Positions 3 through 21,775 of a stretch of DNA of 21,937 bases are shown one piece after another. The stretch's first letter is position 1; every line of letters begins with the position of its first letter. Source of the stretch: a virus. A program made the translations under genes and the position numbers. The notes below the pieces were generated by a model. It did no database searches. It was not told the DNA's origin and worked only from the letters and a program-made list of their open reading frames with translations. The DNA lies in the IMG/VR virus record IMGVR_UViG_3300047157_000037, positions 1-21,937 of that record; one strand, given 5' to 3'.

Positions 3-1484
3 TCTGGCTTGGCTGAACAGGTCGGCGGTCTTGCGTATGAGATCGGTGCGGATATACAGGAGCGCAGAGGCTTACAAGCTGGTCTTGCGGCTGGGCAACA
101 AGCGGCAGAGAAAGGCGAGATCATCGAGACGCAGAAAGGCTTTTTGTCGCAGATCTCTATATTTGATCAGGCATACAACAATGCACTGTCAAAGGCTTAT
201 GTGGCTGGCGTTGATAACGATGCACGAGAGAACATTAACCGACTACTGACTGACAACCCAGATGACATCGAGTCATTTGATGAGGCAGCCAATGCGTATC
301 GCGCAGGCGTCACACAGAACATAGCCGATGAGTTTAGACCACTGATCGACCAGTCAATGGATCAGATGATCTCTAGCGCCCGGTCACAGGTGCATCAAGC
401 GCAGACTGCCAAGAACCTCAAGAACGCAGACGACACACTGATTCGCTCCGGTCAAACAGCAACCGATGCGGCATTGAAAGCGGCGCGTATTGGTGACGAT
501 GAGTCGGCAATGATTGGGCGTATGAATGCGTTTTCAGCTTTTGATGCGCGTGTTGAAGCCGGGACAATGACCCCAGCGGCGGCTGAGACTGCAAAACAGA
601 ATCTTATTGTAGCTACCGAAGGTGAGAAGGCCAGAGGCGGACTGCAAGCTATTATCAAGAATCGTGGTGCGTATGCGGCGGTTGAGTTTATCAACGCGGT
701 AGCTGAGACGCCTGTTAGTAACTTCACGCTTGAACAGCAGGAAAATCTTGCGGATGTCCTACGTGCTGATCTAAACGAATACATATCACTGACCAACATC
801 CAAGAGAAGCAGGCTGAGGAAGCGCTGAAGGCCCGCCAAGGCGAGAACTTCACTGCCCTGTACGTTGGCATTATTAATGGCGAAACGGATATGGGTGACA
901 TTACCCGCACAGCCATGTCGGGAGGGTTAAGCAAAGAGGATTTAAGATCCCTCACTAACGTAATGAATACTCGTGGACAAGGTATAGATAACTATGAATT
1001 TATCTATGGCGTACAAACGCAAATGTATGAAAACCCTGAGTATGCGCGAAAGCTATTAATTGATAATACTGGCGGCCTTGTAACAAGTAAAACCGCTTTA
1101 GATTTACTTAATGCACTCGATCAAGAGCCTATCCTGAACACGGCAACAGCCAAGCGCTATAGAAATTTCTTAAAAAACAATGTGGCTACTACCGACTTGC
1201 TTGGAAACATTACTGGCGAGAACAAAGAGCGGGCAACATTCTTGATGTTTGAGTTTGATAATCGAGTCTTGGCAGGTGAGGCACCGGAGGCAGTGGCATT
1301 GGATCTAGTGTCTGTCGATGACATTCTCAGAAAGAACTTTGATAGAGAGTTTGAAAAACTTGAGGCTGAAATAGAAACCCTAACTGAGGCCGAATACAAC
1401 GAAAGATTCCAATTGTTGACGACACAGCAACAACGTATGGAAAACTTTGAGAACATGATGGCTGATATTAAGAGAGGACAATAA
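3..1484 (+). CDS. Internal virion (ejection) protein, 5'-truncated by window edge
   Basis: The frame is open to the window edge; the TTG at 9 is only the first possible in-frame start, so the true start is probably upstream and the gene is partial. The visible 490 or so residues are rich in Ala, Glu, Gln and Asn, have no signal peptide or clear membrane segment, and look almost wholly alpha-helical with coiled-coil stretches (for example the Glu-rich C-terminal 60 residues). I do not recognise a catalytic motif. Its position directly before a giant polyvalent virion protein and the tail spike matches that of the middle internal-core/ejection proteins of T7-like phages, so a structural DNA-ejection role is inferred from context and composition, not from sequence identity. 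The stop codon overlaps the next start by one base (TAATG), indicating translational coupling. Confidence 0.6.
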   Translation, partial: SGLAEQVGGLAYEIGADIQERRGLQAGLAAGQQAAEKGEIIETQKGFLSQISIFDQAYNNALSKAYVAGVDNDARENINRLLTDNPDDIESFDEAANAYRAGVTQNIADEFRPLIDQSMDQMISSARSQVHQAQTAKNLKNADDTLIRSGQTATDAALKAARIGDDESAMIGRMNAFSAFDARVEAGTMTPAAAETAKQNLIVATEGEKARGGLQAIIKNRGAYAAVEFINAVAETPVSNFTLEQQENLADVLRADLNEYISLTNIQEKQAEEALKARQGENFTALYVGIINGETDMGDITRTAMSGGLSKEDLRSLTNVMNTRGQGIDNYEFIYGVQTQMYENPEYARKLLIDNTGGLVTSKTALDLLNALDQEPILNTATAKRYRNFLKNNVATTDLLGNITGENKERATFLMFEFDNRVLAGEAPEAVALDLVSVDDILRKNFDREFEKLEAEIETLTEAEYNERFQLLTTQQQRMENFENMMADIKRGQ

Positions 1485-4400
1485 TGTCTAGAGCAAAACT
1501 AATTGAACTCTCTCGACGTGCATTAGATGGCGATGAAGCCGCTGTTGCTTCACTACGCACCGAAGATGTAGATGTACCAGATCAAGACTTGCTGAGACGC
1601 GCAAAGAACCGTATCAACAGGATTGAGCAAGAGGCCATGCGTGTACCTTTCGAGAAGCCAAAGACAGGCTTTAAGGCTTATCACGGAACGCCCTATAGGT
1701 TTGATGAGTTTGATATTGAACGCGTTGGTCGAGGTGAAGGCGCTCAGGCCTATGGCTATGGTATGTATTTTGCAGATGAAGCTGATACGGCTAGAGGCTA
1801 TAGAAGGAATATCAACGCAGATAAGCTCGATGCGATGAATGACCGCATGAGCGAGATTGCTAAAGAGCTGCCTAAATACGACATCGTTGGTCAATATAGA
1901 CAGTATAACGATCCAAAAGGTTATGAGCTTGCCGCTGAATATGACCGGCTTATGGAAGATAGGTCTGCCCTCAGAGAATTTAATATCACTGTTGGCGGTC
2001 GAGATATCAATGATGTTTATAGCGACTTAACTGGTGCTCGAGCCACTGATCTTGACTATCAAAAGGCTGAAATCATTGAGCAGATAATGATTGATGGCGA
2101 TACGTTGGGAGTTGTACAGCGTCAAGAAGAATACGACGCATACCCAGAGGGCGTATATAATTGGTTTAAGGAAACTGTACAGCCAAACTTCGATGCTCCC
2201 GGCGCTGTTTATGAGGTGGGCATAAGAGCCGACAAGTCAGAGCTGTTAGATTGGAATAAGCCTGTTTCTGAGCAACCCCCTGCTATCCGCGATGCGCTAC
2301 TTGCTAAAGGCATAAAGGAAACAACCGCGGGGCAAAACGCTTATTACGAACTAGCTAAGGATGCCAAAGGCCGAGACGCTCAAAAGAAAGCAAGCGAAGC
2401 CGCTGAAAAGCTAGGCATTAAAGGCATTCGGTACGAAGATCCTCATGCTCGTGCTGGCTCAAAAAATTACGTCATCTTTGACCCGCGAACAGTAGATATT
2501 GCTACACGCTATGGAATAGCGCTTCCGATGGCTGGCCTCATGCTGGCTAACCAAGACGCGCAAGCCGCTGAGTCTATGGCTCTAACTACTGAGCCGCGTC
2601 CACCAATGCGTGTACCGACGTTTGAAAACGACGACGCCACCGGCAAAGTGCTTGATGCGCGACAAGGCGCAGACCTATCGCCATACGACCGGGCCATGAT
2701 GAAGGCTCAGGCACAGCAAGAGCCAATGACACCCTTCGAGGCCATACCTGCCAGAGCGGAACGCTTTGCTCGTGAAGTCACGATACCCGCATTTAAAGAC
2801 ATCTTTGGCGGAGCAATCGAGGCACCACGTCAGGCCGTAGCTGGCTTCCTTGATGCGACTGCTGAAGCGGCTAGCATGATGGAGTCAATCATCCCACTAG
2901 GCACTATTAGCGGTGCTGAACCCGAATATATTGAGATTGAAGCCGATCCTCGTACCGTAACGGGCGCGGGTGTACGTGCTATCAGCCAGTTTCTTACAGG
3001 CTTTGTCCCTGCATTACGTGGTGTCAAGGCGCTTGGTGTCACAGGGTTTGCGGCTCCGGCGGCGGCAGGTGCTATCGCAGACGCTACAGTCTTTGACCCA
3101 CAGGAAGAGCGATTGTCTAACCTCATTCAAGAGGTGCCAGAACTACAGAACCCAATCACTGAATACCTTGCGGCTAGCCCAGAAGATACGGATGCTGAAG
3201 GGCGGCTTAAAGGCGCTCTAGAGGGCTTGCTCGCTGGTGGTATAGCTGACGGCCTTATCCAAGGCATTCGCCTTGTGAAGAGCCGCAGGGCGCTTGTGGA
3301 GGTAGCTGAGGCCGAAGGCAAGCCAGTTGAACAGATGATTGATGAGGCGATGGCTACCATGAAGGGCGGAATGCCGACCCCTCGTGAGATGCCGCCCGGT
3401 CAAGAGTACATTCCGTTTGATGAGGCGGCTGAAGCTGTACAGCCTACAATCCGCGTACCTGAGTTTAAGATGGGCGCTACAGATGCGGAGCCAGAAGCCG
3501 CACGTAACATTAATCTGGCTAACCTCAACACGACTGAGGACGTATCAACACTCATTGATGAAGTAGCTAGGGCAGACGCACCGAACATTAACGATGCACG
3601 TCGCCAAAAGATTACCAATCAAGATCTTCCAAAGTTAGCCGATGATCTTGGCATGACTGTCGATGACCTATTGGCACGTCGGCAAGGTGAGGCGTTTAAC
3701 GCAGAGCAGATCTTAGCGGCTCGTAAAGTCCTAGTAGCTTCTGGTGAGAACCTAGTCAAGCTGGCTGGTGCGGCTAAGAACGGTAGCGAGATGGATCTTG
3801 CACTATTCCGCAGAGCTATGTCACAGCACCGAGCTATTCAGGCGCAGGTATCAGGCATGACGGCTGAAGCTGGTCGTGCATTGCAGTCATTCCGAGTTGT
3901 GGCGGCAAGCTCAAGAGAGCAAGAGCGCCTAATCAAAGAGGCGCTTGAGACTACAGGCGGCGAAGCTGTATCGCGTGACATGGCGGCTATGCTGTCAGAG
4001 TTGGATGATCCCGCACAGATCGGACGTTTTGTTAAGGATGCGAACAAGGCAACTACTAAAGACCAGCTTTACGAAGCTTGGATCAATGGCTTGCTGTCGT
4101 CACCTACAACCCACATGGTGAACATTCTGTCGAACACAATAGTCGCGGCCTTGACTGTTGGCGAGCGTAAGATTGCAAGTGCTATCGGTCCCAACATCCC
4201 GCCGGGTGAAACATCCGCACAGCTCAAGGGCTTGGTAGATGGTGCGCGTGACGGCTTCCGATTGGCATGGAATGTGCTAAAAACCGGAGAACCTACCGAT
4301 CCGCTCCAGAAAGTAGAGGCAGAGAAGTTTCGCGCAATAACGTCTGAGAACCTCAACATTGCTGGCCCTGCTGGTCGCTTCGCTGACTTCATGGGTGAAG

Positions 4401-5782
4401 CGATACGTGTACCCGGTCGTCTGCTAACGGCGGGAGATGAATACTTTAAGTCTGTTGGCTACCGCATGGAGCTGTACGCACAAGCATATCGTCAGGCATT
4501 CAACGAAGGCTTACGTGATGAAGCGGCGGCAAAGCGTGTTGTTGAGATTATTGAGAACCCGCCTGAGAACATTAAGCAGTCGGCTATTGATGCGTCACGC
4601 TACCAGACCTTTACCAACCAGCTAGGCAAGACAGGCAAGGCGGTTGAGCAAGTACGGAATAACATCCCATACGCTCGCGTCGTCATGCCGTTTGTCCGTA
4701 CACCCGTGAACATCATGTCGTATACCTTCGAGCGTACGCCATTAGCTCCGCTGTCTAGCGCATTCCGCGAAGAGATTGCGGCAGGTGGCGCACGTCGTGA
4801 CCTAGCAATGGGTAAGTTGATTTCTGGCTCGATGTTAATGGCTGTATCTGCTGATCTTGTATTGAGCGGATCAATCACAGGTGCTGGGCCAACCGATCCC
4901 AAGATGCGAAACATTATGCGGGCTACTGGCTGGCAACCATACTCGATCAAGATTGGTGACAAGTATTACGCATACAACCGACTTGACCCTGTTGGCGCAT
5001 TGTTAGGCTTGTCGGCTGACGTGACTGAGATTATTGGGCAAACAACCGAGGCTGAAGCGTCACAGCTTGCTACTGCGGCGGCACTGTCGGTTGCACAGAA
5101 CATGGCAAGTAAGACGTATATGTCTGGCGTGACTGACTTCTTCGATGCTTTCTTTGGCGCAAGCACAGACCCCGAGGCTAAGAACTACAAGCTGGATCGC
5201 TATCTACAGCGCATGGCTAGCTCTGCTGTTCCTTCATTTGTTGCAAACATTGAGCGCAATTTAAGCCCGGAGATGAGTGCTACATACGGTTACATTGATC
5301 GTATTAAGTCACGATTGCCGGGGTACTCCGACGACTTGCCACCACGTCGCAACATCTTTGGCGAACCCATCGTATTAGAGGGCGGTATTGGCCCCGATAT
5401 CATGTCGCCCATCTACACGTCTACAGCAAAGGATGACCCTATTGCAGATGAGATGGTGCGCCAGCAAGTAGCGGTTGGTATGCCGCGCAGACAGATCCAA
5501 GGCATTGAGTTAGATGCCCAGCAGTATGATCGCTACATTCTTTTGTATAGCGGTATTGAGGCGCAGACTTCTCTAAAGGATCAGCTTCGCACCATGTTCA
5601 ATGCAAGAGAATACAAAAATGCTTCAGATGGGCCTGAAGGCGGGAAGGCTTTGATGATAAAATCAGTTTTCACGGCATACAGAGACATGGCGCAAGCGCA
5701 GATGTTGGCGGAAGATGATCAATTGACCAATCAAATTACTTTAGCTCAAGAGCAAAAAGTAGAGAAATTACTGGGACGCTAA
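1484..5782 (+). CDS. Giant polyvalent internal virion protein with N-terminal ADP-ribosyltransferase-like domain
   Basis: A 1432-residue protein starting at ATG 1484 behind AGAGAGGA. Residues about 64-341 look like the ADP-ribosyltransferase domain seen in phage and plasmid polyvalent proteins: a YHGTP motif at 66-70 (His67 is the likely NAD-binding His), YGYGMYFAD at 90-98, a VYEVGI strand near 242-247, and a closing NYVIFDP strand at 328-334. After this come a short hydrophobic stretch (345-356), Ala/Glu-rich helical regions and glycine-rich hydrophobic segments typical of proteins ejected into the host envelope, and a long C-terminal region of the kind found in large phage internal-core proteins. 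Established knowledge: such proteins are carried in the capsid and delivered with the DNA, and phage ARTs (T4 Alt type) modify host proteins. Inference: this ART is injected and acts early. It could be inactive, because I cannot place the third catalytic residue with certainty. Confidence 0.75.
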   Translation: MSRAKLIELSRRALDGDEAAVASLRTEDVDVPDQDLLRRAKNRINRIEQEAMRVPFEKPKTGFKAYHGTPYRFDEFDIERVGRGEGAQAYGYGMYFADEADTARGYRRNINADKLDAMNDRMSEIAKELPKYDIVGQYRQYNDPKGYELAAEYDRLMEDRSALREFNITVGGRDINDVYSDLTGARATDLDYQKAEIIEQIMIDGDTLGVVQRQEEYDAYPEGVYNWFKETVQPNFDAPGAVYEVGIRADKSELLDWNKPVSEQPPAIRDALLAKGIKETTAGQNAYYELAKDAKGRDAQKKASEAAEKLGIKGIRYEDPHARAGSKNYVIFDPRTVDIATRYGIALPMAGLMLANQDAQAAESMALTTEPRPPMRVPTFENDDATGKVLDARQGADLSPYDRAMMKAQAQQEPMTPFEAIPARAERFAREVTIPAFKDIFGGAIEAPRQAVAGFLDATAEAASMMESIIPLGTISGAEPEYIEIEADPRTVTGAGVRAISQFLTGFVPALRGVKALGVTGFAAPAAAGAIADATVFDPQEERLSNLIQEVPELQNPITEYLAASPEDTDAEGRLKGALEGLLAGGIADGLIQGIRLVKSRRALVEVAEAEGKPVEQMIDEAMATMKGGMPTPREMPPGQEYIPFDEAAEAVQPTIRVPEFKMGATDAEPEAARNINLANLNTTEDVSTLIDEVARADAPNINDARRQKITNQDLPKLADDLGMTVDDLLARRQGEAFNAEQILAARKVLVASGENLVKLAGAAKNGSEMDLALFRRAMSQHRAIQAQVSGMTAEAGRALQSFRVVAASSREQERLIKEALETTGGEAVSRDMAAMLSELDDPAQIGRFVKDANKATTKDQLYEAWINGLLSSPTTHMVNILSNTIVAALTVGERKIASAIGPNIPPGETSAQLKGLVDGARDGFRLAWNVLKTGEPTDPLQKVEAEKFRAITSENLNIAGPAGRFADFMGEAIRVPGRLLTAGDEYFKSVGYRMELYAQAYRQAFNEGLRDEAAAKRVVEIIENPPENIKQSAIDASRYQTFTNQLGKTGKAVEQVRNNIPYARVVMPFVRTPVNIMSYTFERTPLAPLSSAFREEIAAGGARRDLAMGKLISGSMLMAVSADLVLSGSITGAGPTDPKMRNIMRATGWQPYSIKIGDKYYAYNRLDPVGALLGLSADVTEIIGQTTEAEASQLATAAALSVAQNMASKTYMSGVTDFFDAFFGASTDPEAKNYKLDRYLQRMASSAVPSFVANIERNLSPEMSATYGYIDRIKSRLPGYSDDLPPRRNIFGEPIVLEGGIGPDIMSPIYTSTAKDDPIADEMVRQQVAVGMPRRQIQGIELDAQQYDRYILLYSGIEAQTSLKDQLRTMFNAREYKNASDGPEGGKALMIKSVFTAYRDMAQAQMLAEDDQLTNQITLAQEQKVEKLLGR

Positions 5783-5783
5783 T

Positions 5784-8219
5784 ATGACCGTAGCAGACAA
5801 CACAAGCCGTAACCAATATAGCGCGACTGCTGGCCAGACGATCTTCTCCTATACGTTTGAGATAGTAGACAAAGACGATCTCGTTGTACTGCAAAACGGC
5901 ATTACCCTCTCAGAAGGCACAGATTACTCTGTAGCGGGCGTTGGCGATGAGAACGGTGGGACTATCACTCTAACCGCAGGCGCTACCCTGAACGATATTA
6001 TGACCCTCTACAGGGACATGCCGTATGAGCGCAACCAAAACTACACCAACTCAGGTGACTTTTTAGCATCCGATGTTAACTCTGACTTTGATAATCTTTG
6101 GCTGGCAGGTGAGCAGACCAATCGGTCGTTTGATCAGTCTGTTCGTAGGCCCATTACAGACTCCACAACGATCTCAATGGAGCTGCCTGACGCTGCTACG
6201 AGAGCAAACAAGTACCTATCATTCAGCCCTACCGGCGCAGTAACAGCAACAACGACTGTACCTCCCGGCATTACAGATGCAGCTCTAGTTACCTATACGC
6301 CCGGCGGCACTGGCGCAATAGACACGACCGTAGAGGATAAGCTTCGCGAGACTATTAGCGCAGATGATTTTGGTGCGTTTGGCGACGGAAGCGCGGACGA
6401 CACTGCTGCTTTGCAAAAGGCCGTTAACTACGTCACGACTACAGGCGCATGGCTAGACGGTGGCAACAAGACTTACAAGATCACAACTACAATCAACGCG
6501 ACAGGCGCGTTTCTGCGTTTAAGAAATTTTAAGTTTGTACTTGGCACTTCATACGCTGATCAAGGCAGGTTTAATTGTGACGCTGGATCTGGCATTGCAG
6601 CGATGACAGTTGCCTTGGAGAACATTGTTGTTGACGGCGGGCGCGGCACATACAAAACTGGCAATGAAACATGGACAGTAAGCGTCTCAGACTTTTTTGG
6701 ATACGACACAATTCAACCAACGCTTAGTGCCTTTTTCAAAGTAAACGCTGTAAACGAAGATACAAACGTCCATATCACTAACAGCAGATTTGAAAACTAT
6801 CATGGCATAGCCGCAATACGAGTTAACTCTTACGGCACAACCATTATTCAAGGCTGCATATTTAAAAATATTTCACACCAAAGTTTTGTCGTGTATCAGA
6901 CATTAGATGGAGGTGTTACAGAAAAAGGTCGCACTCTAGCATCTGATGTTTATGCCGAAGATGTAGGGCTATTGCCAGACACGTTTGATGTTGATGGCTC
7001 ACCTATGAACTTTGCTACGACAACAGCAGCTCCGCAAGGATCATTTAACTTTTTAGTTATTGGCGCTGACTTTAGCATATCCAATGCAGTCGTTAAGAAT
7101 TACGGCTCATGCGGCGTAACAGCAGATAGAAATGTAAACTTCAACGCAACCAACATAACGATCACTAACGACTCCGATCGTTCATTCTCAAACAACCCTT
7201 CTGGCGCATTTTGGATAGAGGCTTGCGAGCGATCTAACGTAGATAATTTGACTGTAGAGATTAGCGCCCGAGCAACTATCGACACGACCGGCCTAGATAA
7301 CTCTCTCTTGCAGATATTTTTAACTGACGGCAACCGGGCTTACTTTAATAATGTAATCCTAAAAACAGATGAGTCTACTGCTTACGTTAATAAGCTGATC
7401 AGAGGAAGTCTCAAAGATAGCGTTCATGTCAGCATTGAAAATTTCTACGTGTCAGGAATTTGCAGAAACCTTGATGACGCTGTTAGCTTTTTGCTGTTGC
7501 CAAACTCATCTATTGACCACGATGTCAGACTATCTAGCGGCTACATTAAGCATGGTGATATTAAGATAGAAGGCCCATATAACGCCACCGTTGACGATGT
7601 ATACCTTGAAGGCGTCTCGGGCGACGGCTCTATTTTATTTCCCGTGCCTGCCAACCCTGGCGTTTCAGGAACCATTAAAGACGCTACTGTAACGGGGTGT
7701 CATGTTGCTGGCGCAATAACAAATGCGTCAAACATTACCGGCAGCCTTAATATCGTAAAAAACAAATACCTTGGATCTATTTCATCTACCGGCGCAGGCA
7801 ATACAGGCAAATATGTCATTAGTGACAATTCGCACATTGCTGGCGGAGTTGCCATTATATGCTCCGGCTCTACAAGCACGGCCTCCGTAGAGATGCGCGG
7901 CAATGCACTGATAGAGGGTGTAACGCGAGTAGATGGAGCTAACAACGCAATTATCAACGACAACAACACTGAGCGCCGTTTAACCGTTGAAGACGTGCAA
8001 AACTTTCAAGTTGTTGGAAACACAGCAAAAACTGACGCAAGCGAGCCGTGTATTTGGATAAACCCAACAACGACAAGCAATGTTTTCTCTGGCGTTGTAA
8101 CTGGTAACAACTGCCTAATAAAGACAGGAACTAGCGGTGCCGGTCATATATCTCTGGCAAGCGGCGTTACAAACGTAATAGAAGGCTTGAACAACAAGCT
8201 AACAGTAAATTGGTCATAA
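5784..8219 (+). CDS. Tail spike/fibre with T7-type N-terminal anchor and beta-helix body
   Basis: 811 residues, starting one base after the preceding stop. Residues 1-115 resemble the N-terminal virion-attachment domain of T7-type tail fibres (YSATAGQTIFSYTFEI near 12-27, LYRDMPYERNQNY near 75-87, then a DFDNLW segment). Residues 195-214, centred on DFGAFGDGSADDT, are the classic entry motif of pectate-lyase-like right-handed beta-helix spikes. The rest is Asn/Val/Ile/Thr-rich with frequent short strands and turns, consistent with stacked beta-helix coils. No catalytic residues of a known depolymerase are obvious, so it may be a glycan-degrading spike or only a binding spike. Context: it precedes a second, repeat-rich fibre that lacks such an anchor, so this protein may supply the attachment point for both. 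Confidence 0.85.
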   Translation: MTVADNTSRNQYSATAGQTIFSYTFEIVDKDDLVVLQNGITLSEGTDYSVAGVGDENGGTITLTAGATLNDIMTLYRDMPYERNQNYTNSGDFLASDVNSDFDNLWLAGEQTNRSFDQSVRRPITDSTTISMELPDAATRANKYLSFSPTGAVTATTTVPPGITDAALVTYTPGGTGAIDTTVEDKLRETISADDFGAFGDGSADDTAALQKAVNYVTTTGAWLDGGNKTYKITTTINATGAFLRLRNFKFVLGTSYADQGRFNCDAGSGIAAMTVALENIVVDGGRGTYKTGNETWTVSVSDFFGYDTIQPTLSAFFKVNAVNEDTNVHITNSRFENYHGIAAIRVNSYGTTIIQGCIFKNISHQSFVVYQTLDGGVTEKGRTLASDVYAEDVGLLPDTFDVDGSPMNFATTTAAPQGSFNFLVIGADFSISNAVVKNYGSCGVTADRNVNFNATNITITNDSDRSFSNNPSGAFWIEACERSNVDNLTVEISARATIDTTGLDNSLLQIFLTDGNRAYFNNVILKTDESTAYVNKLIRGSLKDSVHVSIENFYVSGICRNLDDAVSFLLLPNSSIDHDVRLSSGYIKHGDIKIEGPYNATVDDVYLEGVSGDGSILFPVPANPGVSGTIKDATVTGCHVAGAITNASNITGSLNIVKNKYLGSISSTGAGNTGKYVISDNSHIAGGVAIICSGSTSTASVEMRGNALIEGVTRVDGANNAIINDNNTERRLTVEDVQNFQVVGNTAKTDASEPCIWINPTTTSNVFSGVVTGNNCLIKTGTSGAGHISLASGVTNVIEGLNNKLTVNWS

Positions 8220-13926: not shown

Positions 13927-14259
13927 ATGAGCATAGAGCGGTCAGTAGCGAAGCTCGAAGCCCAGCAGGAAGCGATGGCGCAAGACGTTAGCGAGATGAA
14001 GTCCGCTCTCACAAGCATTGCCCAAACTCTTCAAGACTTATCAAGCATGGAGCAGAGGCAAGTCCACTTGACCGAGACTGTAACGCGCGCCCACAAGCGC
14101 ATTGATGAGATCCAAGCTATCGTGAAAGATGAAGTAAAGAACCACGAGAAGCGCATCCAAGCTATCGAGATTAGCATAGCCAAGAACCAATGGATTGAAC
14201 GCATCATTATGGCCGGTGTCATGGCTGTTATTGGCGTGTGGATCAAGGGCGGCATCTAA
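13927..14259 (+). CDS. Coiled-coil protein with C-terminal membrane segment (XhlA-like lysis accessory)
   Basis: 110 residues, starting two bases after the preceding stop. Residues 1-85 are a heptad-rich coiled coil (SIERSVAKLEAQQEAM, then repeated Ile/Leu/Val spacing), and residues about 90-108 form one membrane helix (RIIMAGVMAVIGVWIKGG). This layout matches XhlA/hemolysin-type small phage membrane proteins that sit beside holins, and also resembles an inner-membrane spanin subunit, although the topology (C-terminal anchor) is wrong for a classical i-spanin. It is directly coupled to the holin gene by a TAATG overlap, so a role in lysis is well supported by context. Confidence 0.7.
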   Translation: MSIERSVAKLEAQQEAMAQDVSEMKSALTSIAQTLQDLSSMEQRQVHLTETVTRAHKRIDEIQAIVKDEVKNHEKRIQAIEISIAKNQWIERIIMAGVMAVIGVWIKGGI

Positions 14260-14657
14260 TGGTGAAGCTATTGGTTGGCCCCATCTTCAAGCTATTAGAC
14301 AAGGTTATCCCGGACGCGGATGAGCGCAGCCGGTTAGCCCACGAGATCGCAACACTAGCGGAGAGACAGACCCATGAAATTGCAAAAGCTCAAATCAATG
14401 TCAACCAGAATGAGGCCAAGCACAAATCGGTTTTTGTCTCTGGCTGGCGACCGGCGTGTGGTTGGGTATGTGTTCTTGGTTTCAGCGTTAATTTTCTTAT
14501 TGTTCCAATTGTAAACATCTACCTAACTGCATGGACGCAGAACCCTCTATTAATCCCGTCACTGGACGTTAGCGAAATGATGCCTGTACTACTGGGTATG
14601 CTGGGATTGGGCGGTATGCGTACCGTAGAAAAGACCAAGAACGTAGCACGTCAATGA
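14259..14657 (+). CDS. Holin, 3-TM GTA-holin type
   Basis: 132 residues from the ATG at 14259; an upstream ATG at 14238 in the same frame would lie inside the preceding gene and has no good Shine-Dalgarno. An N-terminal amphipathic region (LLDKVIPDADERSRLAHEI) is followed by a charged helix and a SVFVSGWRPACGWVCVLGF segment, then hydrophobic helices near residues 70-90 and 108-120. KVIPD ... A(Q)INVNQNEAKH ... GWRP(A)CGW is the signature of the three-TM holin family named after gene transfer agents. It would permeabilise the inner membrane and release the M15 peptidase encoded next, with which it overlaps (ATGA). Confidence 0.82.
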   Translation: MVKLLVGPIFKLLDKVIPDADERSRLAHEIATLAERQTHEIAKAQINVNQNEAKHKSVFVSGWRPACGWVCVLGFSVNFLIVPIVNIYLTAWTQNPLLIPSLDVSEMMPVLLGMLGLGGMRTVEKTKNVARQ

Positions 14658-15001
14658 CCTACAAGTTCTTTAGACTCGAAGAGTTCAACTGCACCCACAC
14701 TAACAAGAACGAGATGGACCATGAGTTTCTCGTAAAGCTCGATGAGCTGCGCGAACGCGTGGGCTTTCCTTTCGTAATCACTTCGGGCTACAGGGATGCA
14801 ACCCATCCTGCCGAGGCTCGCAAAGAAACACCCGGTACACACAACCAAGGCATTGCGGCAGATATCAAAGTCTCCAATGGCTTCGAGCGTATGAACATCG
14901 TGCATGAAGCAATCAAGATGGGGTTCTCTATCGGTGTTGCTAGGACATTCGTACACGTTGACGACCGGAAGACCACCCCGGTTATGTGGACCTATTCTTA
15001 A
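14654..15001 (+). CDS. Endolysin, peptidase M15A (D-Ala-D-Ala carboxypeptidase-like)
   Basis: 115 residues, the usual size for a single-domain M15A phage peptidase. The visible zinc site is His63 and Asp70 in THNQGIAADI plus His101 in FVHVDD; the upstream TSGYRD (43-48) is the conserved substrate-side motif. The N-terminal FFRLEEFNCTHT is the family entry segment. It should cleave peptide cross-links of peptidoglycan once the holin opens the membrane. No signal peptide or cell-wall-binding domain. It is the last gene of the late block: after it comes the first sizeable intergenic region, with no T-tailed terminator visible. Confidence 0.88.
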   Translation: MTYKFFRLEEFNCTHTNKNEMDHEFLVKLDELRERVGFPFVITSGYRDATHPAEARKETPGTHNQGIAADIKVSNGFERMNIVHEAIKMGFSIGVARTFVHVDDRKTTPVMWTYS

Positions 15002-17231: not shown

Positions 17232-17609
17232 ATGATTATTTTAAACGATGGTACTTACTACGAGCCAGACGATGAACAGATTATCTACTGGCAGAATGCT
17301 TTCCCGAAGGTAGATATCTTTGCCGAGCTAAGTGCTATGGCAGCATGGTGTGACGCCAATCCAAAGAAGCGTAAGAAGGATGGCAAGCGATTTGCACAGT
17401 CGTGGTTAAGCCGGGCATCCCAGCAAGAACGAGGCGTGTCCCCATTTGCCGAGAAAATGCAGTCAACTTCTGGTAAAATCGGCTTGAAGAGTTGGAGCTT
17501 CCTAGACGATTGCACCCATGATTACCTTAAGTCGGAAAAGTTTCGAGCATACTGTCTCGAGAAGTATGGGCAGTACGTTACCTTTGAAGGCGAAAGGGTA
17601 ACCGCATGA
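17232..17609 (+). CDS. Replication-type phage protein (short, C-terminal-domain-like)
   Basis: 125 residues from ATG 17232, preceded by AAAAGGGAAG; a GTG two codons upstream (17226) overlaps the Shine-Dalgarno and is less likely. The motif NAFPKVDIFAELSAMAAW followed by CDANPKKRKKDGKRFAQSWLSR is one I know from the C-terminal part of phage replication initiator/organiser proteins (FP.VD...EL..M..W...NP.KRK....RF...WL.R). Here it stands near the N-terminus of a short protein, without the winged-helix DNA-binding domain such proteins often carry. A role in loading or organising the replisome is possible; a free-standing partner domain is the cautious reading. It overlaps the next gene by ATGA. 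Confidence 0.65.
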   Translation: MIILNDGTYYEPDDEQIIYWQNAFPKVDIFAELSAMAAWCDANPKKRKKDGKRFAQSWLSRASQQERGVSPFAEKMQSTSGKIGLKSWSFLDDCTHDYLKSEKFRAYCLEKYGQYVTFEGERVTA

Positions 17610-18001
17610 GCGAGCGGTGGTTTGTAAACAACAAATTCCAAGCCGATCAGTTTTGTGAATACATCCGGGCTAACCAAGACAAGGGGAATATCTACGAGAT
17701 CATTCCTCTCACCCGAACCGGAAAACAAAACGATGCGATCCATGCTTATTGCCGAGAAGTCGCTAGTGTTATGGCGGCGCATGGTATGGACATGAAGACC
17801 GTTATCAAGGAAGGCGTCCCCATTGATCCCACTATGTACCTGATTAAGGATTATATGTGGCGTCCAATTCAAAAGGCTGTAACAGGCGTTGAGTCCACCA
17901 GAAAGATTAATCCCGTGGAGGTCAACGAAATTTACGAGGTATTGAGTAGGCTGCTAGTCGAAAAATGGTCGATCAACGTGCCATTCGGGAGGCGCACTTA
18001 A
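17606..18001 (+). CDS. NinB-like recombination protein
   Basis: 131 residues. Motifs: RTGKQNDAIHAYCREVASVM (40-59 region), DMKTVIKEGVPIDPT, then LIKDYMWRPIQKAVTGVEST, and EVNEIYEVLSRLL. The [KQ]QNxxxHxYxxxxA start and the WRP(I/V)Q.A.TG..ST block are typical of a widespread phage family related to lambda NinB/Orf recombination mediators, which help load annealing proteins at SSB-coated DNA. The presence of an annealing protein, an SSB-like protein and a NinG-like protein nearby supports this. The relationship to NinB is by pattern recognition, not alignment. Confidence 0.65.
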   Translation: MSERWFVNNKFQADQFCEYIRANQDKGNIYEIIPLTRTGKQNDAIHAYCREVASVMAAHGMDMKTVIKEGVPIDPTMYLIKDYMWRPIQKAVTGVESTRKINPVEVNEIYEVLSRLLVEKWSINVPFGRRT

Positions 18002-19427: not shown

Positions 19428-19581
19428 ATGCTTCAAGATCATGGTCCCCCAGTTTAAGAGCGAATACCCTCACAAGCTGGAAGGCTGGTCATGTGACTGC
19501 GGGAACAGCGAGAAGGCCATACTTCGAGAGCGTCAATACACGAGGGCAGATGATGGCAAAGATCAACAACGGGCCAGCTGA
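19393..19581 (+). CDS. Small zinc-ribbon-like protein
   Basis: 62 residues from ATG 19393; ATG 19378 and 19414 are also possible. GGAG sits nine bases upstream of 19393. It overlaps the previous gene by 35 bases and the next by 32. KCTECFKIMVPQ and later GWSCDCGNSEKA give C-x2-C and C-x-C pairs about 25 residues apart, which suggests one bound zinc. The C-terminus is basic and polar. A DNA- or protein-binding zinc ribbon is the simplest reading. The heavy overlap and short length lower confidence. Confidence 0.55.
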   Translation: MKSYLPQMKCTECFKIMVPQFKSEYPHKLEGWSCDCGNSEKAILRERQYTRADDGKDQQRAS

Positions 19582-19939
19582 CAAAGAATTTAGCAAAGCT
19601 GTAAGACTGCGCGACGGCGAATGCTTGCACTGCCACAAGCAAGGACGGCTTGAGTGCTGTCACGTGTTTGGCCGCAGAAATAAGCGGTTGCGCTGGGCAA
19701 TGTCAAACGCAGTTTCCATGTGCCACTATTGCCACCGGCATATGACCGAACAGCCAATAATTTTTCACGAGTGGTTGAGAGAGCTGTACGGGGATGAGCG
19801 CATGGATAAGTTGCGCCTGACCAGCAATGAGATTTACAAGACGACTGAGGCAGTAAGGAAGGAAATCGCGGCACATTACCGCGATGAAGTCAGGCGTAAG
19901 GAACTTGATCCTGATTACGAGATTCAGAGCTGGAACTAA
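19550..19939 (+). CDS. NinG-like HNH-type recombination protein
   Basis: 129 residues from ATG 19550 (19553 is equally possible; the longer frame to 19493 overlaps the zinc-ribbon gene and lacks a ribosome site). RDGECLHCHKQGRLECCHVF and MCHYCHRHM give two C-x2-C pairs (Cys25/28 and Cys58/61), with His38, Asn53 and His62 placed as in HNH/NinG (Rap)-type proteins. The FGRRNKRLRWAMSNAVSMC stretch and the C-terminal FHEWLRELYG match phage NinG relatives, which bind or cut branched recombination intermediates. Its 3' end overlaps by 50 bases the 3' end of the leftward sigma-like gene, with no terminator between. Confidence 0.78.
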   Translation: MMAKINNGPADKEFSKAVRLRDGECLHCHKQGRLECCHVFGRRNKRLRWAMSNAVSMCHYCHRHMTEQPIIFHEWLRELYGDERMDKLRLTSNEIYKTTEAVRKEIAAHYRDEVRRKELDPDYEIQSWN

Positions 19940-20754: not shown

Positions 20755-20967
20755 ATGTACGAGCAAGAAATGTTTAACAAAAATCCGGGCTTTGTAATAG
20801 GCGCGGTTATTTTATTTATCACTGTGTTGGGCATCGTAGGTAATGCCGACATGGAAGAAGAGATTAGCCAGTACGAGTTCTACTGTGAGAACGTCGCCAT
20901 GTGGATAGATTCCAATGGTGAGAACGGGCATCCAAACTTCCGAGGTGTCGATTGTGAAAGTTCTTGA
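20755..20967 (+). CDS. Small single-pass membrane protein
   Basis: 70 residues starting at ATG 20755 behind AAAGGGAATGGG. Residues 12-30 (GFVIGAVILFITVLGIVGN) are one membrane helix; the acidic remainder (ADMEEEISQYEFYCENVAMW) carries two Cys (YCEN and the near-terminal DCESS) that could form a disulphide if exported. The topology cannot be decided from the charges alone. The function is unknown; the size and layout resemble small phage membrane proteins that act on the host envelope. Its end overlaps the methyltransferase start by 14 bases. Confidence 0.7.
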   Translation: MYEQEMFNKNPGFVIGAVILFITVLGIVGNADMEEEISQYEFYCENVAMWIDSNGENGHPNFRGVDCESS

Positions 20968-21775
20968 TCTATTCGCTGGGATCGGTGGCTTTACCATCGG
21001 TCTTGAGCGAGCAGGATTCGAGACAGCGGCTTTCTGTGAGATAGATCCTTATGCTCAGAAAGTCTTACGCAAGAACTGGCCCGGAGTACCGATCTATGAC
21101 GATGTTAGAACAATCACAGCAGAGCGACTGGCTTCAGACGGAATTGGAGTCGATGTCATTACAGGCGGATTCCCCTGCCAAGACATCTCAGTCTCAGGAA
21201 ATCAGGCAGGAATACAAGACGGAACCCGAAGCGGGCTATGGTCAGAGTGCGCCCGTCTTATTGGGGAGCTTCGACCTAGATACGCCATCTTTGAAAACGT
21301 CACAAACTTGCTTAATGGAGAGCGGGGAGCTTGGTTTAAGCGAGTTCTTTGGGACATTTCCGCGCTCGGGTATGATGCGGAGTGGCACTGTATACCAGCT
21401 TCCGAACTTGGCGCGCACCATCACAGAGATCGGATCTGGATTATTGCCTACCCCGGCGGCGAGCACGGGAGGAACAACACCCAACTGGCAACCGATCAGG
21501 CCGAGCGGTCACAGAGCGCAATTAACCTTGCAACAATATGTGCGGATGTGGCCGACACCAACAGCGCACAACGCAAAAGAGGGAGCCTATCCTTCGGAAT
21601 ACAATCGCAATACACCAACATTGTCGGCGCAAGCGGGTGGGGCGCTGAACCCGACGTGGGTCGAGTGGCTAATGGGATTCCCGCTAGGTCACACAGACTT
21701 AAATGCTTAGGCAATGCAGTCGTTCCGCCAATACCTGAGTTGATAGGGAGGGCAATAAATGAAGCTGACCTATAA
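20954..21775 (+). CDS. C5-cytosine DNA methyltransferase
   Basis: 273 residues from GTG 20954 (KVLDLFAGIGG), chosen because GAGGTG lies six bases upstream and motif I then starts at residue 5 as in the family. Motif I DLFAGIGG (5-12), motif IV GGFPCQ with catalytic Cys75, motif VI ENV (114-116), motif VIII-like HRDRIWI (157-163) and motif X GNAVVP (253-258) are all present, so the enzyme looks complete. The target-recognition region between VIII and X is only about 90 residues. It would methylate cytosine in phage DNA, most likely to escape host restriction. No restriction endonuclease is seen beside it. A second long frame runs inside it (21153-21710). Confidence 0.9.
   Translation: MKVLDLFAGIGGFTIGLERAGFETAAFCEIDPYAQKVLRKNWPGVPIYDDVRTITAERLASDGIGVDVITGGFPCQDISVSGNQAGIQDGTRSGLWSECARLIGELRPRYAIFENVTNLLNGERGAWFKRVLWDISALGYDAEWHCIPASELGAHHHRDRIWIIAYPGGEHGRNNTQLATDQAERSQSAINLATICADVADTNSAQRKRGSLSFGIQSQYTNIVGASGWGAEPDVGRVANGIPARSHRLKCLGNAVVPPIPELIGRAINEADL
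21153..21710 (+). CDS. Overprinted +1-frame protein inside the methyltransferase gene
   Basis: 185 residues from ATG 21153 (preceded by GGAG, three bases away), wholly inside the methyltransferase in the +1 frame. An earlier in-frame ATG at 21051 also exists. The product reads like a real protein: SPAKTSQSQ near the start, DTPSLKTSQTCL, FPRSGMMRSGTVYQLPNL, LLPTPAA, MWPTPTAHNAKEGAYP, and GGALNPTWVEWLMGFPLGHT near the end. I recognise these motifs from a phage protein family, in some phages joined to methyltransferase N-termini. The methyltransferase frame over the same DNA also keeps recognisable motifs (ENV, HRDRIW, VADTNS, GNAVVP). Thus both frames look conserved. Translation of this frame is not shown; it could be a conserved but unexpressed frame. 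Confidence 0.6.
   Translation: MSLQADSPAKTSQSQEIRQEYKTEPEAGYGQSAPVLLGSFDLDTPSLKTSQTCLMESGELGLSEFFGTFPRSGMMRSGTVYQLPNLARTITEIGSGLLPTPAASTGGTTPNWQPIRPSGHRAQLTLQQYVRMWPTPTAHNAKEGAYPSEYNRNTPTLSAQAGGALNPTWVEWLMGFPLGHTDLNA

What the first reader, a model, noticed from the sequence alone, without database searches (positions are those of the whole stretch)
1484..2510. ADP-ribosyltransferase-like domain at the front of an injected virion protein
The YHGTP ... YGYGMYFAD ... NYVIFDP pattern at residues 66-334 of a 1432-residue internal virion protein suggests an effector enzyme delivered with the DNA. ADP-ribosylation by virion-borne enzymes is known from T4 Alt; in a podovirus-like internal core protein it would be an early takeover or anti-defence tool whose target is unknown.
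Basis: partly seen in the sequence, partly recalled or inferred. Interest (0 to 1): 0.52.

Follow-up and report, generated by a model that had tools for sequence, protein, structure and literature searches.

The report
Swappable enzyme on phage injection protein
A protein that a virus of bacteria carries inside its particle to help inject its DNA has, at its front end, a domain built like enzymes that attach ADP-ribose to other molecules, and close relatives of the virus have exchanged that domain for other versions or for a different domain, which suggests an exchangeable tool delivered at the start of infection.

Summary
Confirmed. Window 1484-5782 encodes a 1432-aa internal virion protein D (T7 gp16 type: PHROG match, C-D-fibre gene order). 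Residues about 57-345 are an ADP-ribosyltransferase-fold domain of the ART-PolyVal family (Pfam PF18760, 32.7 bits, cut-off 31.2; 79 of 86 relatives match). An AlphaFold model aligns with diphtheria toxin, PARPs and, best, the ejection core of cyanophage A4. The His/Tyr pair asked for is conserved (84/86, 86/86), but where PARPs carry Glu there is an invariant Asn (86/86), so chemistry is unproven.

Among phages whose protein D core is at least 92% identical, the ART can be only 41-52% identical, or replaced by another domain (L025); elsewhere ARTs are 94-97% identical on cores of 73-84%. Synonymous divergence supports exchange in both directions. T7-like protein D relatives compared here lack the domain.

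The kind is known (polyvalent ARTs, Iyer 2017). The T7-type carrier, cassette exchange and invariant Asn are the new parts. In T7 the gp16 N-terminus stays in the periplasm, so delivery to the cytoplasm, where NAD is, is the weakest step. Verdict: new variant of a known kind.

The parts
1484..5782 (+). internal virion protein D (T7 gp16 type), 1432 aa, with N-terminal ART cassette
   Evidence: ORF; PHROG 6651 internal virion protein, E 1.2e-58, residues 977-1431; tblastn to protein D genes of podoviruses, 80 phage records
1484..1651 (+). residues 1-56, helical N-terminal piece; itself variable among relatives
   Evidence: helices 3-14, 18-25, 33-51 in the model; identity 11-100% among relatives
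1652..2518 (+). ART-fold domain, residues 57-345 (the exchanged cassette)
   Evidence: PF18760; model aligned to ART structures over residues 56-345; exchange
1682..1684 (+). His67, motif I, strand 1
   Evidence: H in 84 of 86 rows; strand 63-69
1766..1768 (+). Tyr95, motif II, strand 2
   Evidence: Y in 86 of 86 rows; strand 94-97
1781..2188 (+). helical insert, residues 100-235, between strand 2 and strand 3 of the ART core
   Evidence: helices 100-131 to 222-235 in the model; length differs between relatives
2438..2440 (+). Asp319, after strand 314-318; candidate carboxylate near N328
   Evidence: D in 85 of 86 rows; position in the hairpin; role inferred
2465..2467 (+). Asn328, motif III position (where PARP1 has Glu)
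   Evidence: N in 86 of 86 rows; strand 327-331; correspondence with the PARP Glu is by sequence pattern, not by superposition
2510..2581 (+). seam, residues 343-366 (RYGIALPMAGLMLANQDAQAAESM), 3' border of the exchanged region
   Evidence: DNA identity recovers at codons about 330-390; similar seam GLPLPALMLLDPQQAQA in the non-ART cassette of L025
2804..5779 (+). conserved protein D part, residues 441-1432
   Evidence: 88-99% identical in 8 of the 12 protein D relatives aligned, 84-98% in L003; aligns with protein D of CRP-114, ProddE and S28-C10
3..1484 (+). internal virion protein C position (cut by the window start); its last ~200 codons occur in two allele types in relatives
   Evidence: position directly upstream, overlap of one base; full-length copies in relatives; allele types
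5784..8219 (+). tail fibre / spike gene following protein D
   Evidence: PHROG 1640 tail protein, E 3.4e-24 on residues 1-124

Best explanation
The gene encodes a T7-type ejection (internal virion) protein D that carries an ADP-ribosyltransferase-fold effector as an exchangeable N-terminal cassette. The protein is packaged in the head core, leaves the virion ahead of or with the DNA, and the ART domain then uses host NAD to modify a host (or incoming phage) molecule in the first minutes of infection. The cassette is replaced by recombination between the last part of the protein C gene and codon about 345-390 of the protein D gene, as expected if hosts evolve resistance or differ in the target. 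Shown by computation: fold family, His/Tyr pair, fusion to protein D, exchange between relatives, purifying selection. Inferred: packaging, delivery into the cytoplasm, catalysis with Asn328 (perhaps with Asp319), any host target.
For: Pfam ART-PolyVal above its cut-off for residues 1-375 and in 79 of 86 relatives. Model aligned over residues 56-345 to cyanophage A4 ejection core 9k3a_B (Z 9.9, rmsd 4.9, 142 aligned), MbcT (Z 8.0), diphtheria toxin (Z 7.8), NatT (7.6), PARP5A (7.5), PARP10 (7.2); by my count 41 of the 50 rows are diphtheria toxin, PARP/tankyrase or RES-type toxins, plus A4. Viral structure library: best matches include proteins named ART-PolyVal-like, E down to 3.3e-15 for the best row. 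H67 84/86, Y95 86/86. Protein D identity by PHROG, by relatives and by gene order portal-scaffold-capsid-tail tube A-B-protein B-C-D-fibre read in L019. Exchange: window against L005, ART 52% and core 94%; L019 against L020, residues 1-56 100%, core 96%, ART 41%; L018 against L022, ART 94% and core 73%; window against L003, ART 97% and core 84%; synonymous divergence window-L003 0.107 in ART and 0.926 in core, window-L005 2.68 (saturated) in ART and 0.16 in core; conflicting well-supported groups in ART and core trees. dN/dS of the ART 0.04-0.32 in the ten pairs tried.
Against: The third active-site residue of the H-Y type is Glu/Asp/Gln elsewhere and Asn here, in all 86 rows. One relative, L019, has Thr for the His and intact protein D, so the protein works in the virion without an active ART. 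In T7 the gp16 N-terminus is assigned to the periplasm (PMC8954989, passages), where NAD is scarce (general knowledge). Foldseek alone gave no PDB match at E <= 0.001. Z values of 7-8 are near what unrelated models reach (note). None of 20 protein D loci in bacterial genomes or MAGs carries an ART. No virion proteomics for this phage.
Confidence: 0.6

Rival explanations
1. Retired enzyme kept as a structural or binding part: the ART fold, with Asn at the catalytic position, is a pseudoenzyme that helps to pack protein D in the core or binds a nucleotide or a host factor.
For: Invariant Asn328 (86/86); L019 with Thr for His67; an ART-fold domain is resolved as part of a solved podovirus ejection core, 9k3a_B, whose gene in Anabaena phage A-4L shows YHGT and GTYFS but TTLVIN at motif III.
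Against: His and Tyr are conserved in 84 and 86 of 86, which a mere scaffold would not need; the same place is filled by an unrelated domain in L025 and relatives and is short in 42 of 79 sampled loci, so the core does not need it; the same family occurs as separate genes and in other carriers.
Confidence: 0.2
2. It acts in the periplasm or on the virion itself: by T7 topology the N-terminal domain stays outside the inner membrane and takes the place of the T7 transglycosylase, acting on envelope or phage components.
For: T7 gp16 residues 1-156 (transglycosylase) are placed in the periplasm (PMC8954989, passages); the window protein gave no lysozyme or transglycosylase hit in Pfam and the ART sits at the equivalent end.
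Against: ART enzymes need NAD, which is cytoplasmic; additional gp16 copies may enter the cell fully (same review); polyvalent ARTs are otherwise carried by proteins thought to enter the cytoplasm, such as N4 vRNAP (PMC5512222, passages).
Confidence: 0.12
3. It acts in the producing cell: the protein is made late and the ART modifies late host or phage proteins (assembly, superinfection exclusion) before packaging.
For: The gene lies in the structural cluster, expected to be expressed late.
Against: A late-only enzyme need not be fused to the ejection protein; separate ART genes exist in related phages.
Confidence: 0.08

Closest known systems
ART-PolyVal ARTs of polyvalent proteins (Pfam PF18760; prototype Roseovarius Plymouth podovirus 1 vRNAP)
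   Same: Pfam match above cut-off; His motif, Tyr motif; carried by a large virion protein delivered at infection; proposed role against the host (PMC5512222, passages).
   Different: Carrier is T7-type protein D and not N4 vRNAP; third residue Asn (prototype region reads GEIMVVK); long helical insert after strand 2; prototype scores only 13 bits with the profile of this subfamily.
ART-like domain in the ejection core of cyanophage A4 (PDB 9k3a; Anabaena phage A-4L A4L_27)
   Same: ART fold inside a podovirus internal core protein; best structural match, Z 9.9; YHGT and GTYFS motifs.
   Different: Lies near the C-terminus (about 1418-1603 of 1717 aa) and not at the front; no significant sequence match. 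The paper (Hou et al. 2025) was not held, only its title was seen in a reference list.
T4 Alt
   Same: Function proposed: virion-borne ART injected with the DNA.
   Different: R-S-E active site, another clade (PMC5512222, passages); separate protein, not an ejection protein.
T7 gp16 / internal virion protein D
   Same: Conserved C-terminal two thirds, gene order, packaged core protein by homology.
   Different: The N-terminal peptidoglycan hydrolase of T7 is absent; an ART or another domain stands there.
Sulfitobacter phage phiGT1 gp5 (phiGT1_5)
   Same: Same ART subfamily (53% identity over residues 60-112), in the head gene cluster.
   Different: Separate 387-aa protein between portal-region and scaffold genes.

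Membership tests
ART-PolyVal (PF18760), ARTs of polyvalent proteins | profile match above the curated cut-off | tested here: met
   32.7 bits against 31.2 for residues 1-375; 27.7 bits, below, with the whole protein; 79 of 86 relatives match at E <= 0.001
ART-PolyVal (PF18760), ARTs of polyvalent proteins | His in strand 1 and Tyr in strand 2 | tested here: met
   H67 84/86 on strand 63-69, Y95 86/86 on strand 94-97
ART-PolyVal (PF18760), ARTs of polyvalent proteins | Asp in strand 5 (Tox-ART-HYD2, PMC5512222) | tested here: inconclusive
   The strand that matches motif III (327-331) begins with K327-N328; Asp333 follows it (74/86) and Asp319 precedes it (85/86); model coordinates could not be superposed
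H-Y-[EDQ] clade of ARTs (PARP, diphtheria toxin) | ART fold | tested here: met
   VIA alignment of the model over 56-345 to diphtheria toxin Z 7.8, PARP5A 7.5, PARP10 7.2, MbcT 8.0; moderate Z, Foldseek alone not significant
H-Y-[EDQ] clade of ARTs (PARP, diphtheria toxin) | Glu, Asp or Gln at motif III | tested here: inconclusive
   By sequence pattern the position is Asn328, 86 of 86; not superposed
Alt/VIP2 (R-S-E) ARTs | Arg, Ser, Glu active site | tested here: not met
   His67 and Tyr95 stand at motifs I and II
T7 gp16 / internal virion protein D | homologous conserved part and gene order before the tail fibre | tested here: met
   PHROG 6651 E 1.2e-58; 80 phage records; alignment with three annotated protein Ds; order in L019
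T7 gp16 / internal virion protein D | N-terminal peptidoglycan hydrolase (phage-specific in the family) | tested here: not met
   no such Pfam hit at E <= 1 in the 1432 aa; the feature is not universal, PMC8954989
virion-delivered ADP-ribosyltransferase (functional class) | present in virions, enters the host, NAD-dependent transfer | not testable with these tools
   needs proteomics and enzyme assays

The most novel reading that the evidence does not exclude
The N-terminus of T7-type internal virion protein D is a dedicated effector slot: phages exchange whole enzymes there by recombination (ART alleles, a second domain whose predicted fold resembles YTH base readers, and in a more distant relative another ART subfamily), and the ART of this subfamily works with a non-acidic His-Tyr-Asn site that has no described counterpart, so it performs an altered NAD chemistry or hits a non-protein target.
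Probability: 0.25. Interest if true: 0.7.

Novelty: new variant of a known kind. Interest (0 to 1): 0.5.

Why it matters
Podovirus ejection proteins are usually seen as DNA-delivery machinery. If the front of protein D is a place where enzymes are exchanged, then T7-like phages deliver effectors with their DNA as T4 does with Alt, and the alleles offer a direct way to find the host targets: the same phage backbone occurs with different cassettes. The invariant Asn at the third active-site position makes a clear test of what ART-PolyVal enzymes can do.

Tried and rejected
Chance motif: rejected by profile, conservation and fold. T4 Alt relative: rejected by active-site type. Two separate proteins (ART and protein D with an internal start): not favoured, because the reading frame runs through in all complete relatives with an ART, but cleavage cannot be excluded. 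Strict pairing of the protein C C-terminal alleles with ART types: rejected; L019 and L020 share protein C type B and differ in ART. A transmembrane helix or signal-peptide-like seam after the ART: not supported, the strongest hydrophobic windows are 514-532 and 1113-1131. Sequence profile of the ART against the PDB found no ART entry; single-sequence search gave only an unrelated weak hit; Foldseek alone listed 14-3-3 and tankyrase without significance because of the helical insert. The first profile of the ART did not align with the A4 domain beyond the GxGTYFS stretch. Tree conflict was judged by support values and synonymous divergence; no AU test was run. L025 was dropped from the trees because it has no ART. 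PBECR3 in L073 was first taken for a cassette in the same slot; it lies further in (residues 373-491), after the part that matches the conserved middle, so it is not counted as an N-terminal cassette.

Sampling: for the 86-row alignment, 100 ORFs matched; 8 duplicates and 3 partial rows were dropped (89 left) and 3 rows from annotated phage records (L009-L011) were left out because the folding tool does not accept them. The 79-locus tally comes from a search whose first row is the window protein, so ART-bearing loci are over-represented. The absence of this architecture in print was looked for; only open-licence papers are held, so it is not proven.
Full report
What is there. The window is a 21,937-base IMG/VR record (G000) with no near match among 50,697 phage records. 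ORF 1484-5782 (+) encodes 1432 aa. Its C-terminal part matches PHROG 6651, internal virion protein (residues 977-1431, E 1.2e-58), and the gene stands after a protein C-like gene and before a tail fibre gene, as in T7. In the longer relative L019 the ORFs read in an order that fits portal, scaffold, capsid, tail tube A, tail tube B, protein B, protein C, protein D, fibre (the names of these ORFs are my reading of order and sequence, not a profile search, except as cited). tblastn with the whole protein found 80 phage records (Pelagibacter, Synechococcus, Roseobacter phages and others), many annotated as internal virion protein D, all matched through the conserved part; with residues 1-359 only 4 records matched.

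The front domain. PF18760 ART-PolyVal matches residues 65-110 (27.7 bits with the full protein; 32.7 bits against a cut-off of 31.2 with residues 1-375). I collected relatives of the domain from IMG/VR and aligned 86 (A3; drops listed under Tried and rejected). Conservation: His67 84/86 (Thr in L019, gap in L137), Tyr95 86/86, Gly82, Gly84, Glu85, Gly86, Gln88, Gly91 and Gly93 86/86, Asp319 85/86, Arg323 83/86, Asn328 86/86, Asp333 74/86. 79 of the 86 match PF18760 at E <= 0.001.

Structure. AlphaFold2 on A3 gave mean pLDDT 80.1, with strands 63-69 (His67), 94-97 (Tyr95), 241-247, 254-256, 314-318, 327-331 (Asn328) and 337-342, and a helical insert at 100-235. Foldseek alone found nothing significant in the PDB. 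VIA-align of Foldseek's 827 best chains ranks first chain B of 9k3a, the cyanophage A4 pre-ejectosome (Z 9.9, rmsd 4.9, 142 aligned, chain residues 1418-1603), then MbcT 8.0, diphtheria toxin 7.8, NatT 7.6, PARP5A 7.5, PARP10 7.2. By my count of the 50 rows, 14 are diphtheria toxin, 24 PARP or tankyrase, 3 RES-type toxins; 7 are unrelated helical proteins; the rest are A4 and SAIP. Z of 7-8 alone would be weak; the agreement of families and the two motifs make the ART fold convincing. In the viral library the best rows include proteins named ART-PolyVal-like. The A4 match led to Anabaena phage A-4L: A4L_27 has YHGT, GSGTYFS and TTLVINPD at the place aligned, so an ART-like domain has been resolved inside a podovirus core. 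The sequences are too far apart for a profile match, and the paper could not be read.

The third residue. Iyer et al. 2017 (PMC5512222, passages) describe polyvalent ARTs as His-Tyr-Asp, and the clade is H-Y-[EDQ] (PMC7955679, passages, which lists motif III of PARP1 as YNE). By pattern, the residue before the V-I-F-D strand here is Asn328, invariant. The prototype reads GEIMVVK and another protein D-borne ART (L075) SQDTVAVF, which would put Glu and Asp there. Asp319, just across the hairpin, is nearly invariant and could supply a carboxylate (inference). Coordinates could not be superposed, so this is a strong hint, not a proof.

An exchangeable cassette. Protein D of CRP-114, ProddE and S28-C10 begins near residue 440-480 of the window protein apart from a short divergent leader and lacks the ART. 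In IMG/VR relatives (79 loci) the N-terminal part is ART in 12, a second domain (X) in 7, cut by the contig end in 6, otherwise long in 12 and short in 42. Among close relatives the border is sharp. Identities in ART / residues 701-1432: window-L005 52/94; L019-L020 41/96 with residues 1-56 100; window-L017 41/93; the opposite: L018-L022 94/73; window-L003 97/84. In 90-base bins the identity recovers at codons about 330-390, and on the 5' side the variable stretch in several pairs reaches into the last ~200 codons of the protein C gene, which occurs in two types not tied to the ART type. Synonymous divergence excludes mere fast evolution: window-L003 0.107 in ART and 0.926 in core, window-L005 2.68 (saturated) and 0.16. 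The trees disagree with good support: ART groups L020 with L017, L018, L022 (100/100), core groups L019 with L020 (100/100), L017 and L018 with L016 (100/99) and puts L022 outside (97/98). dN/dS of the ART is 0.04-0.32 in ten pairs, so alleles are under constraint, with L019 (His to Thr) as a possible inactive one.

The second domain. In L025, with core 92% identical to the window, the ART is replaced by a ~460-aa N-terminal part without Pfam or PHROG hits. It is a family of its own (223 IMG/VR stretches confirmed). AlphaFold2 on 68 sequences gave pLDDT 95.6. VIA-align rows are nearly all YTH domains (best Z 7.3, 140 aligned), but Foldseek's best E was 0.3 and no sequence search supported it, so YTH-like is a lead only. 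ART and X are fused in 8 ORFs, ART first in all 8, and lie next to each other in 4 further loci, which ties the two functionally. The seams after ART and after X look alike.

How it most likely works. The protein is built into the head core and ejected. In T7 the C-terminal part reaches the cytoplasm and the N-terminal hydrolase stays in the periplasm (PMC8954989, passages). Either this protein D has another topology, or some copies enter whole, or the cassette is released; otherwise an NAD-using enzyme at this end makes little sense. I hold early modification of a host or phage molecule as most likely (0.6), a pseudoenzyme as the main rival (0.2).

Comparison and novelty. Carriers known for such ARTs are N4 vRNAP, MuF and other head proteins and polyvalent proteins (PMC5512222 and PMC9503650, passages). 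I found no paper that places one on a T7-type protein D or reports cassette exchange there (open-licence papers only). It is a new variant of a known kind.

Noticed in passing
L025:8633-10003 and relatives L027, L029-L031, L033, L034, L173-L192: A ~300-aa phage domain without Pfam or PHROG family takes the place of the ART; its AlphaFold model (pLDDT 95.6) aligns mostly with YTH m6A-reader domains (Z up to 7.3), with a conserved W-A-S motif; fused behind the ART in 8 ORFs.
   Followed up: partly
window 3-1484 (protein C gene) and the same gene in L003-L005, L016-L020, L022, L025: The last ~200 codons of protein C occur in two allele types among otherwise near-identical genes, next to the exchanged ART; not tied to the ART type.
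   Followed up: partly
L019:9998-10912: ART allele with Thr in place of the His of motif I in an otherwise intact protein D.
   Followed up: no
L073:8123-10003: PBECR3 nuclease domain (PF18812, E 1e-21) inside a protein D, behind the conserved middle part.
   Followed up: no
L075:4546-5538: A different ART-PolyVal subfamily (E 1.8e-11) at the N-terminus of a distant protein D.
   Followed up: partly
L170:20116-25269 (-): Anabaena phage A-4L protein A4L_27, annotated 'tail protein', has an ART-like domain near its C-terminus that matches the region resolved in PDB 9k3a chain B.
   Followed up: partly
window 20915-21775, 17606-18001, 19493-19939, 14238-14657, 14654-15001: C5-cytosine methyltransferase without a restriction enzyme nearby, NinB-like and NinG-like genes, gene-transfer-agent type holin and an M15 peptidase (endolysin).
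   Followed up: no
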